From Desulfobulbaceae bacterium (lineage in GTDB: Bacteria > Desulfobacterota > Desulfobulbia > Desulfobulbales > Desulfobulbaceae), in contig JAABTP010000002.1 of NCBI GenBank assembly GCA_011389815.1, positions 1 through 64,000 on the forward strand: a stretch of DNA of 64,000 nucleotides, given 5' to 3'. Positions 13,172 to 64,000 of the stretch are shown here, piece by piece. The stretch's first letter is position 1. Every line of letters begins with the position of its first letter. The notes under the pieces were generated by a model. The model worked only from the letters and a program-made list of their open reading frames with translations. It had not been told where the DNA came from and did no database searches. The translations under genes were made by a program, and so were the position numbers.

Positions 13172-13257
13172 GTAGGTCTGATTGAGTGCAACGAAATCAG
13201 ACAATGCAGGATTCGGAAAATCAACTGTCCGCTTTCGTTCCACTCAAGCGGACTTCC
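13172..13257. repeat. REPIN: two inverted REP hairpins
   Basis: The plus-strand unit (13172-13202) has the foot GTAG, then the stem GTCTGATT / AATCAGAC around an 11-base loop. The minus-strand unit (13257-13227) has the foot GGAA and the stem GTCCGCTT / AAGCGGAC. They share the loop core GAGTG-AACGA and are separated by 24 bases. Inverted REP pairs of this kind are the mobile unit of RAYT transposases. The same hairpin flanks the RAYT gene at 62142-62644. Confidence 0.8.
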
Positions 13258-13410
13258 TTGGGGCATGGAGGATTGTTTGGATTGTCAGGCATCTCTTGTC
13301 TCCTTCGGTTGAACTTTACGGTTAAAGCAGTCCGTAAGGGTGATGAACGGCACGGGCTGCCGGAATTTCGTCTTGTGCGAGCGGTTTTTCACCTCCGGGG
13401 AGGGGAAGAA

Positions 13411-13492
13411 CCTATCCCTTGGTATGGTTCAGGGTATCCTCGGGTATGCCTCAACCATACCTTGGGTATGCTTCAAGGTATCAAGGGATAGG
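13411..13492. repeat. Structured repeat with GGTATG units
   Basis: A perfect 11-bp inverted repeat CCTATCCCTTG (13411-13421) / CAAGGGATAGG (13482-13492) encloses several irregular copies of GGGTATGCTTC or its complement. One more GGTATGCTTC copy lies just downstream at about 13507. The rest of the 13258-13575 gap holds no supportable gene. Confidence 0.55.
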
Positions 13493-13575
13493 TAAAACCT
13501 ATTGCTTGGTATGCTTCTTCCTATTGACGGAGGGAGTCGTCGTCTGCCGGGAGGGGTTTAAATGTAATTAAACGC

Positions 13576-13836
13576 CTACTCGACCACTAAGTAGATCATT
13601 CCTGTTATCCCTATAGGCAAAGCATCCAAAATAAATCTGCGTCTTTTGACTTTGAAATGATCTTTTCCTAACTTTTTTTCTTCTGCCACTTGAGTTGGGA
13701 TCTGTATTTCATCCCCAGGCAAAGGCATTGGTTGGGAGGTTGGGACAGAAAAATCGAATCCTATATCATTCATTCCATTTTCCGTCGCTACGATGACTTT
13801 TAAGGTATATCTTGGATTTATTTGTGGTTGGTTCAT
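13576..13836 (-). CDS. Small hypothetical protein
   Basis: The frame has 86 codons with AAGGA at good spacing before the ATG, so it looks translated. The product begins MNQPQINPRYTLKVIVATEN, is rich in beta-prone sequence, and ends in a hydrophobic segment, DALPIGITGMIYLVVE. I recognise no family. It lies in the island that interrupts the nqr operon. Confidence 0.55.
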   Translation of the reverse strand: MNQPQINPRYTLKVIVATENGMNDIGFDFSVPTSQPMPLPGDEIQIPTQVAEEKKLGKDHFKVKRRRFILDALPIGITGMIYLVVE

Positions 13837-13989
13837 TTCTTGTTCCTTGCAATTTCAATATTATCCAAACATCATTTTTGTACGGAAACCGCGCTCAATC
13901 CGACTTTGATATGCTTTAACCTATCGCGGGAGAGGAAAAAGGTATACTTGGGTATGTTTTTCGATTCGCAGGGAAGATTCCGTGATTAA

Positions 13990-14373
13990 TTAAGAGAGAA
14001 AAATGGTGTATAAAATTTCATCGTCCTTTAGGACCGTGAAATGACCGTATGGGCTAATGTTGTCATTCATTTTCTGCCATAACCAGCCATCTGAGTCTTG
14101 ATAAATTTTGGCAATATTTGGATAAGAAGCTGAACCGAAAGGATAGTTATCCTCAAGATACCTTTTTAAGTTCAAAACTTTCCATCGTTTTACGATAACA
14201 GGTTTTTGATCCTGAGTAAGGATAATTATTTTCTTTCCGGCAGTTAAAATGAATTCACCCTCAAGATATCTATCTTCTTTCCCTGGCATTACTCTCGCTT
14301 GTCTAGCTCCGTTGGTCATGATTGTCATGGTATAGCGAGTTTTTCCTATTGAGTGATCAATACATTTATCCAT
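13990..14373 (-). CDS. Hypothetical protein
   Basis: The protein has 127 residues and begins MDKCIDHSIGKTRYTMTIMT. It has no membrane segment, no signal peptide and no motif I recognise. The mixed charged and aromatic composition and coherent length favour a real soluble protein, but the ribosome site is weak. It lies between two REP elements in the nqr island and was probably acquired with it. Confidence 0.5.
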   Translation of the reverse strand: MDKCIDHSIGKTRYTMTIMTNGARQARVMPGKEDRYLEGEFILTAGKKIIILTQDQKPVIVKRWKVLNLKRYLEDNYPFGSASYPNIAKIYQDSDGWLWQKMNDNISPYGHFTVLKDDEILYTIFLS

Positions 14374-14407
14374 TTTCTACCTAAATCGTTAAAGTTAATC
14401 CCAGTCC

Positions 14408-14438
14408 GTAGGTCTTATTGAGTGCAACGAAATCAGAC
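14408..14438 (+). repeat. REP hairpin with GTAG foot
   Basis: It has the foot GTAG, then GTCTTATT / AATCAGAC around the same 11-base loop as the unit at 13172; one stem pair is mismatched. It is single, in the same orientation as the 13172 unit and 1,236 bases from it. Confidence 0.75.
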
Positions 14439-14472
14439 AATTCAGCTTACCAGCAGACAGCAACTTCCGTGC

Positions 14473-14778
14473 TCATCTCTCATAAATTATTTCCCCGGCT
14501 TCTATTTCACGCAGGAACGCACCCTTTGCCGCTGCTTTCAGCGGAAGCACATCAACAGGAAGTATCTTGGAAACTTCCCGAACAAGCCTTCGATATTTGA
14601 GAGCAAGAGGGAGATATTTTTTATCGCTGTTCTGGAAGACAGCAATGTCAACATCATTGGGCTGGTCCGAGTGAAGAAAAGACCCGAACAGGACTATTTT
14701 TTGAATTTCTTTTTCGTGGCAGAGCGTATTTCTGATCTGTTCTTTGATGAACTCTTTACGACTTTTGGAAATGCTCAT
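14473..14778 (-). CDS. MNT-type nucleotidyltransferase
   Basis: The 101-residue protein has the nucleotidyltransferase core IVLFGSFLHSDQPNDVDIAV with the G-S pair and both metal-binding Asp residues. It is a minimal polymerase-beta-like enzyme of the kind found in MNT-HEPN toxin-antitoxin pairs. No HEPN-type gene is visible on either side. It is the second orphan MNT gene in the window and is not closely similar to the one at 686-952. The 157-base gap upstream contains only a 30-codon frame whose TGA overlaps this ATG; I do not call it. Confidence 0.8.
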   Translation of the reverse strand: MSISKSRKEFIKEQIRNTLCHEKEIQKIVLFGSFLHSDQPNDVDIAVFQNSDKKYLPLALKYRRLVREVSKILPVDVLPLKAAAKGAFLREIEAGEIIYER

Positions 14779-61036: not shown

Positions 61037-62025
61037 ATGAAAAAAGTTGCCTCATTGAAGTATGGCGTGGTGTTTAAGAAGGCCTTCTGTGACCCGGAAA
61101 TCTTTATGGCATTTGTTCAGGATATGCAGCGATTCCCGGTTTGAATGAACTTAACAAGCTGAAATAATGAAAACAAGACTGGAAAAAGTTTACGAAAGAC
61201 ATTTCTGTCATACTGATTTTAAGAAATTAGCCGTTTTCGATCTTTTCTTACGAGATCAGTATTTTGCAAAAAGCTTTCGCAATCTATTTTTTACCGTTTT
61301 TAACCATTACAAGATGTTAAGGTGTTTTGGGTCGGGAATAGCTGCAGGATATGCTGGGCTTGGCTATCACGATTGAGCATGTCGAAACCGAGAAAGAATT
61401 TGATCCGCCCATAGGATATGTCAAACCCCGCTTTGATCTCTTTGCGGAAGATATAAGCCATCGTGTCATCGTTGATATTCAACATGCCCGTACCACAGAT
61501 CATTATGATCGGTTTCTCTATTATCATTGCGTGGCCCTTCTTGAACAGATTTCCAGCTCTGCGAATTATCGCCCGGATTTGAAGGTGTTTACCGTAGTGG
61601 TGCTCACATCAGGTGATCGGCACCGTACGCCTATATCTGTAACAGATTTTGACCCTCACGACCTTGTTGGTCGGCCTTTGGGGGAAATTCCTCATAAAAT
61701 TATTTATCTTTGTCCTAAATATGTGTCCAAGGACACCCCGCAGCCGTATCGGGAGTGGTTAGAGGCAATCAATGATACATTGGATGAAGAGGTTGATGAA
61801 TCCATGTATCATCGTGCTGAAATTCAGAAGCTGTTCGCGACTATTCAGAGTGACCATATTTCCCCGGAAGAGCGGGCTCGGATGATTGAAGAGTATCACC
61901 AGGAGGAGTTGCAGGAGGTTGCGGTTGAGGAGGGAAAGCGAACTATTGCCTTTGCCCTGTTGCAGCAGGGGGTAGCTGTTGAGGTTATTGCTAAGGCTAC
62001 TGGGTTGTCGGTTGGGGGAGCTTGA
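61037..62025 (+). pseudogene. Rpn-like PD-(D/E)XK nuclease gene interrupted by a MITE
   Basis: The first 30 codons (MKKVASLKYGVVFKKAFCDP) start at 61037 after AAGGTG. The rest resumes at 61345 with QDMLGLAITIEHVETEKEF. It contains FDLFAEDISHRVIVDIQHAR, the core of the PDDEXK_2 / Rpn-type transposase-like nucleases, and an acidic coiled tail. Between them lies a 218-bp element plus one copy of a 9-bp direct repeat. Removing 227 bases joins the halves in one frame of 253 codons. The gene is therefore broken by a recent insertion. An ATG at 61351 could still give a shortened protein lacking the first ~32 residues. Confidence 0.85.
61127..61344. mobile_element. 218-bp MITE with terminal inverted repeats and 9-bp target duplication
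   Basis: The ends read CAGCGATTCCCG (61127-61138) and, inverted, CAGCTATTCCCG (61344-61333), with one mismatch. CAGGATATG flanks both sides (61118-61126 and 61345-61353). The inside has a short open frame from 61167 (MKTRLEKVYERHFCHTDFKK) that may be a remnant of the parent transposase. Without a transposase of its own it must be moved in trans. Confidence 0.85.
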
Positions 62026-62065: not shown

Positions 62066-62096
62066 GTAGGTCTGCTTGAGTGCAGCGAAAGCGGAC
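62066..62096 (+). repeat. REP hairpin upstream of the RAYT gene
   Basis: Foot GTAG, then GTCTGCTT / AAGCGGAC (one G-T pair) around an 11-base loop, 46 bases before the RAYT start. Confidence 0.85.
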
Positions 62097-62141
62097 ATGT
62101 CTTTCTCGGGAAAAAGGAAAACTCTACTTGTGACGGTGAGC

Positions 62142-62644
62142 CATGCAATACCGACGTGCAAGAGTACAAGGAGGAACCTATTTTTTCACAGTCGTTACCC
62201 ATGAGCGCCAACAAGATACTGACTGCTGATGAAAATATCGAAATATTGCGGGCCGGATTTCAATATGTGATGCAGAATCATCCCTTCGGCATAGATGCTC
62301 ATGTCATCCTGCCGGACCATCTTCATTTTATTTGGACATTACCAGATGGAGATCGCGATTTTTCAACGAGGTGGCGCTTGATTAAGAGCTACTTCACCCG
62401 GAATTTTGATGCGGGATATTCACCATGGCAAAAGAAGTTTTGGGAGCATCTTATTCGAGATGAAAGGGATCTGATGAATCATGTTGAGTATATTCATTAT
62501 AACCCGGTTAAGCATGGCTTGGTTCAATCACCTGTTGACTGGCCTTTTTCGAGTATTCATCGTTACATCCTTGATGGATTGTATGGCCCGAATTGGGGCA
62601 GGTCGGAACCGGTGTTGTTGGATGACAGGCTTGGAAGTGAATAA
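62142..62644 (+). pseudogene. REP-associated tyrosine transposase (RAYT), frameshifted
   Basis: The natural start is the ATG at 62142, MQYRRARVQGGTYFFTVVTH, the usual RAYT opening. After ERQQ the frame breaks near 62211-62217 by a one-base change and stops at 62226. The other frame continues ILTADENIEILRAGF through DAHVILPDHLHFIWTLPDGD to HVEYIHYNPVKHGLV. The His-x-His-like metal motif HLHF and the catalytic Tyr region are intact. RAYTs are single-strand transposases of the IS200-like (Y1) type that move REP hairpins. REPs flank this gene in inverted orientation. Unless the frameshift is a sequencing error or is bypassed, this copy is inactive. Confidence 0.85.
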
Positions 62645-62677
62645 GCGGAGTTGAATGCATTCAACATTGTTGGAATT

Positions 62678-62708
62678 GTCTGATTTCGTTGCACTCAATC
62701 AGACCTAC
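62678..62708 (-). repeat. REP hairpin downstream of the RAYT gene
   Basis: On the minus strand: GTAG, then GTCTGATT / AATCAGAC around the same loop, 34 bases after the RAYT stop and inverted relative to the upstream copy. Its sequence is almost the same as the unit at 13172-13202. A 14-bp palindrome TTGAATGCATTCAA lies just before it. Confidence 0.85.
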
Positions 62709-62733: not shown

Positions 62734-64000
62734 ATGGAATGGTTTGCTAATGCGTTGCAATGGCTTATCGACAATAAAGCATGGGAATGGATCTTCAGCG
62801 GCATTGGAATTACTTCAAGTTCAGCTATCATTTCGATAACAGTGGCTTGTTTGTTAAGGAAGAGAAACTCCCCATCGCCGCACGAAGACATCTCCGCCTG
62901 CCCACCCAACCTCCGCCGTGATTTACTCAGGCGCTTCCGTGAAGATCTGACCACTCGCCTTGCCTCCCTGCTGGATGAACGCGATCCTCTGAATCTGGAC
63001 AAGATGCTATCGCCACAGGAAGTCTCGCATCCCCATTCCCTGCGGGATATTCTGTATGAGCAGGAGGGTGATGCTCCTCAGTTGACAGGTCAAAGCGTTA
63101 TTGAAATTTTCAATCAGCCGGATACCCGTCAGCGGCTCGCCATTCTGGGGAAGCCGGGAAGTGGCAAGACCTTTTCCCTTTTAGAACTGTTTGACCATCT
63201 GTTGCAGCTGGCCGAAGAGGATAAAAATAAACCGTTGCCGGTGATTTTTGAATGCTCCGAATGGGACGGTCAGGAGCTTGTTCCTTGGATGGCTGGCCAG
63301 ATAAATAAATATGTAACAAAGGAGTTGGCCCATCAGCTTGTGCAAGATAGGGTTATCTTCCCACTCTTTGACGGATTGGATGAGCTGTCGCAAACTCGAC
63401 AGGAAGAGTTTGTTCGAGTCTTCAACGCCTTTCAGCCGGGGCGTTCTTTGGTACTCTGTTGCAGAGTTAAAGAGTATCGGCACTTACAAGAAAAGGTAGC
63501 ATTGAATCATGCTATCATTCTTCAGGATATCTCAGCAAAGAAGCTGGAGGGGTATCTCAAGCGTTTGCAACTATATAGTTTGTGGGATCTCTTGCAGCAG
63601 TTACGAAAAGAAGGAGATGAGGGCTGTTTGTTTGAACTCGCTCGTCGTCCTCTTTTTCTCGGGATTATATTGACACTGGAACAGGAGAAGAAGTTGAGCC
63701 AAGATGCTGAGTTGCAGAGCGGGAGGGATGCGGAAGACCGTTTATGGCAGCTTTACCTGAATTATTATTTAAAGGAGAGTTTGCCTGATAGAGTGGCCTC
63801 AGCTGATAGTTACGGGAAAAAATATACGAAAGAGCAGACGCTACACTGGCTGGGTTGTTTGGCAAGACACATGAACGCAGCGAAGAAAATAGAGTTGCGG
63901 ATTGAGGAATTGCAGCCAACTATGTTGCACGAATATTTGCGATTCTGCATAAGCTATGGGGTAGCTGTTGGGTGGGCTGGAGGTATGCTTTTCGGGCTGG
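62734..64000 (+). CDS. Membrane-anchored NACHT-domain NTPase (cut by window edge)
   Basis: The frame opens at an ATG with GAGAGGAA upstream and runs off the right edge after 422 codons. Residues about 18-41 are a membrane helix (WIFSGIGITSSSAIISITVA). Walker A ILGKPGSGKT lies near 138-147 and Walker B PLFDGLDEL near 210-218. The Gly after the first Asp and the DE pair are typical of NACHT/STAND NTPases. The last visible residues, GVAVGWAGGMLFGL, look like the start of a further Gly-rich membrane region. Some bacterial NACHT proteins protect against phage; this one has no visible effector yet, and the C-terminal sensor is outside the window. It stands directly beside the RAYT-REP unit. Confidence 0.85.
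   Translation, partial: MEWFANALQWLIDNKAWEWIFSGIGITSSSAIISITVACLLRKRNSPSPHEDISACPPNLRRDLLRRFREDLTTRLASLLDERDPLNLDKMLSPQEVSHPHSLRDILYEQEGDAPQLTGQSVIEIFNQPDTRQRLAILGKPGSGKTFSLLELFDHLLQLAEEDKNKPLPVIFECSEWDGQELVPWMAGQINKYVTKELAHQLVQDRVIFPLFDGLDELSQTRQEEFVRVFNAFQPGRSLVLCCRVKEYRHLQEKVALNHAIILQDISAKKLEGYLKRLQLYSLWDLLQQLRKEGDEGCLFELARRPLFLGIILTLEQEKKLSQDAELQSGRDAEDRLWQLYLNYYLKESLPDRVASADSYGKKYTKEQTLHWLGCLARHMNAAKKIELRIEELQPTMLHEYLRFCISYGVAVGWAGGMLFGL

What the first reader, a model, noticed from the sequence alone, without database searches (positions are those of the whole stretch)
62066..62708. RAYT gene framed by inverted GTAG-REP hairpins
The gene encodes a REP-associated tyrosine transposase, and REPs with the classic GTAG foot lie on both sides. 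The same hairpin recurs at 13172, 13227 and 14408 in the nqr island. This identifies the mobiliser of those repeats. The copy has one frameshift near 62211, so it may have just died.
Basis: partly seen in the sequence, partly recalled or inferred. Interest (0 to 1): 0.65.

Follow-up and report, generated by a model that had tools for sequence, protein, structure and literature searches.

The report
Broken REP-transposase gene between its REPs
A small transposase gene, now frame-broken, sits between two inverted copies of a short hairpin repeat that is scattered through its host genome and sister species; this is a known kind of arrangement (a "REPtron"), and it is the only one found attached to this repeat family in the genus.

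Summary
A REP-associated tyrosine transposase (RAYT) gene lies at 62143-62644 (NCBIfam NF047646, 152 bits; solved relative 4ER8, E. coli TnpA_REP, 1.7e-37). It is framed by two inverted 31-bp GTAG hairpins at 62066-62096 (+) and 62678-62708 (-). The same hairpin lies at 13172 (+), 13227 (-, foot decayed) and 14408 (+). The reading frame changes once, between about 62206 and 62220. The hairpin is a real REP family: 34 copies in this 4.0-Mb genome, 0 for a reversed-pattern control, compensatory change in the stem, and many copies paired as ~79-bp REPINs.

"This identifies the mobiliser" is only partly supported. All seven genus-mates carry the same REPs (12-61 copies, similar density), yet none of their RAYT loci examined is framed by them. 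The window copy is the only RAYT found attached to this family in eight genomes, and is best read as the remnant of the family's mobiliser. The frameshift fits decay, but sequencing error is not excluded. RAYTs framed by inverted GTAG REPs, including pseudogenised ones, are published, so this is a new member of a known kind. Interest is low to moderate.

The parts
62066..62096 (+). Left REP, pyrimidine (B) stem type, GTAG foot outermost; 46 bp before the RAYT start codon
   Evidence: 0 mismatches to the IUPAC family pattern; covariance model 51.8 bits; 8-bp stem in single-stranded DNA folding
62143..62644 (+). RAYT gene with one frame change between about 62206 and 62220; first ~24 codons in one frame, the rest in another, stop 62642-62644
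   Evidence: NF047646 152 bits, N-terminal part in the other frame, alignment with 7 intact relatives, 4ER8 E 1.7e-37
62678..62708 (-). Right REP, purine (A) stem type, inverted; 33 bp after the RAYT stop
   Evidence: 0 mismatches; covariance model 54.9 bits; folding z-score -4.1 for this sequence
13172..13202 (+). REP, A type; left half of a REPIN
   Evidence: identical to the right RAYT-flanking REP; 54.9 bits
13227..13257 (-). REP, B type, decayed foot; right half of the same REPIN (86 bp in all, 24-bp spacer)
   Evidence: profile score 36.9, paired with 13172; counterpart REPIN in genus-mates G003 and G005
14408..14438 (+). Single REP, A type
   Evidence: 1 mismatch; 49.5 bits

Best explanation
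This is a REPtron: a single-copy RAYT gene held between two inverted cognate REPs. Working model: the RAYT, an HUH/tyrosine single-strand endonuclease, recognises the GTAG-tagged hairpin in single-stranded DNA, cleaves at the foot, and copies or moves paired REPs (REPINs) to new sites. That made the REPs of this genome and, through an ancestral copy, those of its genus. The cassette has the polarity of a REPIN (B-type REP on one side, inverted A-type on the other), so REPINs are plausibly its internally deleted, gene-less derivatives. The window gene is now broken by one frame change that detaches the N-terminal part. No genus-mate RAYT examined is attached to this REP family, so the family is probably a stranded population, decaying or mobilised by another RAYT. 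Shown: gene identity, inverted REPs, genome-wide family, hairpin covariation, REPIN pairing, uniqueness of the association in the sampled genus. Inferred: recognition, cleavage and copying by this lineage; origin of REPINs; loss in relatives; that the frame change is biological.
For: RAYT family match and solved relative. Inverted REPs 46 and 33 bp from the gene. 34 REPs in the genome, reversed-pattern control 0. Stem covariation: pair 10/26 is 111 of 124 paired against a shuffle mean of 55; score 0.229 against 0.121, 0/500 shuffles. All 20 sampled REPINs join one purine-type and one pyrimidine-type REP, the same polarity as the cassette. In 77 RAYT loci from other genomes GTAG hairpins flank both sides in 51, with 25-fold higher density near the gene than far from it. 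G111 holds an intact relative framed by its own REP, which recurs in that genome. Known RAYT biology: PMC2817692, PMC3733652, PMC3686654, PMC8049555.
Against: REP density in genus-mates without this attached RAYT is similar or higher. The nearest RAYT relatives by sequence (G075, G009, G018) lack this REP altogether, having their own types. No empty site or transposition event was demonstrated. Derivation of REPIN spacers from the cassette ends has only weak, post hoc support (0.0075).
Confidence: 0.8

Rival explanations
1. The gene is intact in the living organism and the frame change is a sequencing or assembly error; the cassette is an ordinary, active REPtron.
For: Only one frame change in about 160 codons; HUH and tyrosine motifs kept; codon positions against the closest relative differ 0.25/0.20/0.53, as under purifying selection for most of its history. 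The genome is a 233-contig draft.
Against: The upstream Rpn-type gene is also broken, by an inserted element with copies elsewhere in the genome, so the neighbourhood does contain real gene decay.
Confidence: 0.35
2. The REPs of the genus are moved in trans by another RAYT that is not flanked by this REP, and the window gene was merely captured between two REPs of that population or is a minor player.
For: All seven genus-mates have REPs but no attached RAYT among the loci examined; RAYTs without any GTAG REP within 350 bp exist in G003 and G006 (L025, L027).
Against: RAYT and flanking REP types track each other across lineages; capture between two correctly oriented REPs of opposite type, each within 50 bp of the gene, is improbable. 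L025/L027-type genes were found only in G003 and G006.
Confidence: 0.15
3. Chance: the gene and the hairpins are unrelated neighbours, the hairpins being, for example, transcription terminators.
For: Both REPs lie between genes, where terminators also lie.
Against: Conserved GTAG foot and loop, a family at about 8.5 copies per Mb, and two inverted copies within 50 bp of a RAYT; the same layout in 51 of 77 RAYT loci elsewhere.
Confidence: 0.02

Closest known systems
RAYT genes flanked by two inverted REPs / REPtrons (PMC2817692; PMC3733652)
   Same: Tyrosine-HUH transposase gene, NPVKxG motif, two inverted GTAG-footed REPs, REPs scattered through the genome, lineage-specific REP stems
   Different: Frame-broken copy; a host group for which a word search of those two papers found no mention (Desulfo-); only tens of REPs per genome
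E. coli TnpA_REP (4ER8) and its REPs
   Same: Solved relative covering nearly the whole open part (E 1.7e-37); shares the short form of the variable loop; paired REPs of two stem types
   Different: Different REP stem and loop; about half the residues differ
REPINs (PMC3116915, PMC8049555)
   Same: Two inverted REPs with a short spacer, gene-less, scattered; singlets present as well
   Different: Spacer mostly 17 bp; fixed pairing of one purine-type with one pyrimidine-type stem
Pseudogenised RAYTs and left-behind REP classes in Pseudomonas and Stenotrophomonas (PMC3686654)
   Same: Frameshifted RAYT genes and REP classes outliving their RAYT are described there
   Different: Here REPs in relatives without the attached RAYT are as numerous as in the genome that holds it

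Membership tests
RAYT | Sequence match to the curated RAYT family | tested here: met
   NF047646 152 bits, cut-off 80
RAYT | HUH motif and nucleophilic tyrosine next to NP(L/V)(R/K)xG | tested here: met
   DHLH and EYIHYNPVKHG, invariant in the alignment; motif as given in PMC2817692
RAYT | Conserved N-terminal threonine in the same reading frame | tested here: not met
   GGTYFFTVVT is present in the DNA but in a different frame from the catalytic part; the gene is a broken member
[quoted passage not shown]
   62066-62096 (+) and 62678-62708 (-)
RAYT / REPtron | Transposase gene itself single-copy in the genome | tested here: met
   No other match over the family cut-off in the genome
GTAG REP | GTAG foot followed by a palindromic stem under pairing constraint | tested here: met
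   Foot and stem; covariation; one stem pair (8/28) is often mismatched
GTAG REP | Many copies scattered in the genome | tested here: met
   34 by covariance model, 23 by pattern with control 0; fewer than the >100 usual in gammaproteobacteria
REPIN | Two inverted REPs with a short spacer, dispersed | tested here: met
   20 sampled pairs, mostly 17-bp spacer
RAYT | Binds and cleaves its REP and moves REPINs | not testable with these tools
   Needs protein and DNA assays

The most novel reading that the evidence does not exclude
A genus-wide REPIN population persists without an attached cognate RAYT in seven of eight genomes, kept up in trans by an unattached RAYT lineage (such as the REP-free RAYTs at L025/L027) or by host processes alone.
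Probability: 0.12. Interest if true: 0.45.

Novelty: new member of a known kind. Interest (0 to 1): 0.25.

Why it matters
It adds a host genus to the RAYT/REP system and gives a natural comparison for an open question: do REPIN populations decay once their cognate RAYT breaks or is lost? Eight genomes share one REP family, and only one still holds an attached, broken RAYT.

Tried and rejected
Pfam Y1_Tnp is too weak for this gene (13 bits) and does not list it in the genome; NCBIfam does. Other Y1-type genes of this genome (C110, C190, C233) were considered as mobilisers: C233 has no REP of this family in the fetched 3.5 kb; C110 and C190 were not examined further. The transposase at G003:C100, with a REPIN of this family in its upstream region, looked like a cognate but is a divergent type with other GTAG-tagged hairpins closer to it. 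No clean empty site for the cassette was found: relatives of the upstream Rpn gene sit in different contexts. Derivation of REPIN spacers from the cassette ends gave only weak, post hoc support. One look-up failed on a too-short search term. No structure prediction was run, because a solved relative sufficed.

Full report
OBSERVATION. The region reads as described. At 62066 a 31-bp GTAG hairpin (GTAGGTCTGCTTGAGTGCAGCGAAAGCGGAC) precedes a gene whose ATG is at 62143 and whose stop ends at 62644; an inverted hairpin of the same family (GTAGGTCTGATTGAGTGCAACGAAATCAGAC) lies at 62678-62708. A family pattern with up to 3 mismatches finds four copies in the window, against none in 100 shuffles; a core pattern adds the copy at 13227. 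The 13172/13227 pair is a REPIN with a decayed right foot; 14408 is a single REP.

THE GENE. The open part (62156-62641) matches NCBIfam NF047646, REP-associated tyrosine transposase, at 152 bits (cut-off 80), from model position 22 on; Pfam Y1_Tnp is sub-threshold. The N-terminal 24 residues (MQYRRARVQGGTYFFTVVTHERQQ, read from the sequence) are in another frame; a genome search with the same model shows positions 1-39 at 62146-62262 with two TGA inside. So the frame changes once, between about 62206 and 62220. DHLH, the EYIHYNPVKHG motif and other invariant residues of eight aligned RAYTs are kept. The only solved relative found is 4ER8, E. coli TnpA_REP. The N-terminal threonine that Nunvar et al. 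give as RAYT-specific (PMC2817692) is in the detached part, so the gene as assembled is probably not functional (inference).

THE REPEAT FAMILY. In the own genome (4.0 Mb, 233 contigs) the IUPAC pattern gives 23 copies and its reversed control 0; a covariance model built from 40 REPs gives 34 at E<=0.01. Among 124 distinct REPs of the genus, the stem pair 10/26, left free by the search pattern, takes A-T 50, C-G 50, T-A 5 and G-C 1, with 111 of 124 paired against a shuffle mean of 55; the pair 8/28 is often mismatched. In the 40-row alignment the covariation score is 0.229 against 0.121 (0/500 shuffles) and falls when the partner is slid. Single-stranded DNA folding gives the 8-bp stem in both RAYT-flanking REPs. 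The 20 sampled pairs (some of them orthologous, so not all independent) always join one purine-type and one pyrimidine-type stem, mostly with a 17-bp spacer. The RAYT cassette has the same polarity: pyrimidine type before the gene, purine type after it.

GENERALITY. In 77 RAYT loci from a scan of public genomes, GTAG hairpins lie close on both sides in 51; density is 4.5 per kb near the gene and 0.18 per kb far from it. Each lineage has its own stem; many close relatives of this RAYT share the loop plan GAG...CGA. A tree places the window gene in a ten-row group (81/93) mostly of RAYTs from other genera of its order and family, while the genus-mates' RAYTs in the tree fall in other clades.

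DOES IT IDENTIFY THE MOBILISER? The same REPs occur in all seven genus-mates: 14, 41, 31, 26, 12, 61 and 33 copies in G001-G007, against 34 here. Their stronger RAYT hits are other lineages. A profile scan of the fetched RAYT loci finds high-scoring REPs of this family in the genus only at the window gene. Some weaker RAYT-like hits of the genus were not fetched; for them only the coordinates were compared. One adjacency appeared (G003:C100), and that gene is a divergent type with other GTAG-tagged hairpins closer to it. Outside the genus, G020, G033 and G034 carry similar REPs (20, 16 and 6 copies), and G111 carries 14 copies of a related REP, three of which frame its own intact RAYT. The window RAYT's nearest relatives (G075, G009, G018) have none of this REP but have their own, which fits RAYT-REP co-divergence. 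The REPIN at 13172 has counterparts in G003 and G005, so that copy predates this species.

LITERATURE. The layout is published: RAYTs flanked by two inverted REPs (PMC2817692), REPtrons and repeat-specific REPtrons (PMC3733652), pseudogenised RAYTs and REP classes left behind after RAYT loss (PMC3686654), and REPINs as non-autonomous elements duplicated by single-copy RAYTs (PMC8049555).

VERDICT. A real, frame-broken REPtron: a new member of a known kind. The point worth keeping is that it is the only RAYT found attached to a REP family shared by eight members of the genus, which makes the genus a natural test of what happens to REPs when their RAYT is lost.

Noticed in passing
window 61118-61350: A roughly 222-bp element with terminal inverted repeats (AGCGATTCCCGG.../...CGGGAATAGCT) and a 9-bp direct repeat AGGATATGC interrupts the Rpn/PDDEXK_2-type gene; the homologous gene in G005 (L223) has a single AGGATATGC. 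Copies 98-100% identical lie on contigs C102, C168, C182 and C12 and a partial one on C75: a MITE-like element.
   Followed up: partly
window 61351-62025: The Rpn-type gene upstream of the cassette also seems to change frame near 62010 compared with relatives L226/L231, besides being interrupted by the element above.
   Followed up: partly
window 62734-64000: A NACHT-domain NTPase gene starts 26 bp after the right REP and runs off the window; its defence role, if any, was not examined.
   Followed up: no
G000:C157:64940 (+), L237 4941: Another B-type REP of the family just beyond the window's end.
   Followed up: no
window 13172-14475 against L115 and L126: In G005 the REPIN is followed almost at once by the sequence that in the window comes only after 14463; in the window about 1.2 kb and a second REP lie between, as if the segment had been inserted or lost between REPs.
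   Followed up: partly
L113, L114, L234: A divergent Y1-type transposase group (MPYNP(D/E)IHxRRSIRL...) in genus-mates has its own GTAG-tagged hairpins nearby, different from RAYT REPs.
   Followed up: no
L025 (G003) and L027 (G006): Intact full-length RAYTs of one clade with no GTAG REP found within 350 bp, candidates for acting in trans.
   Followed up: no
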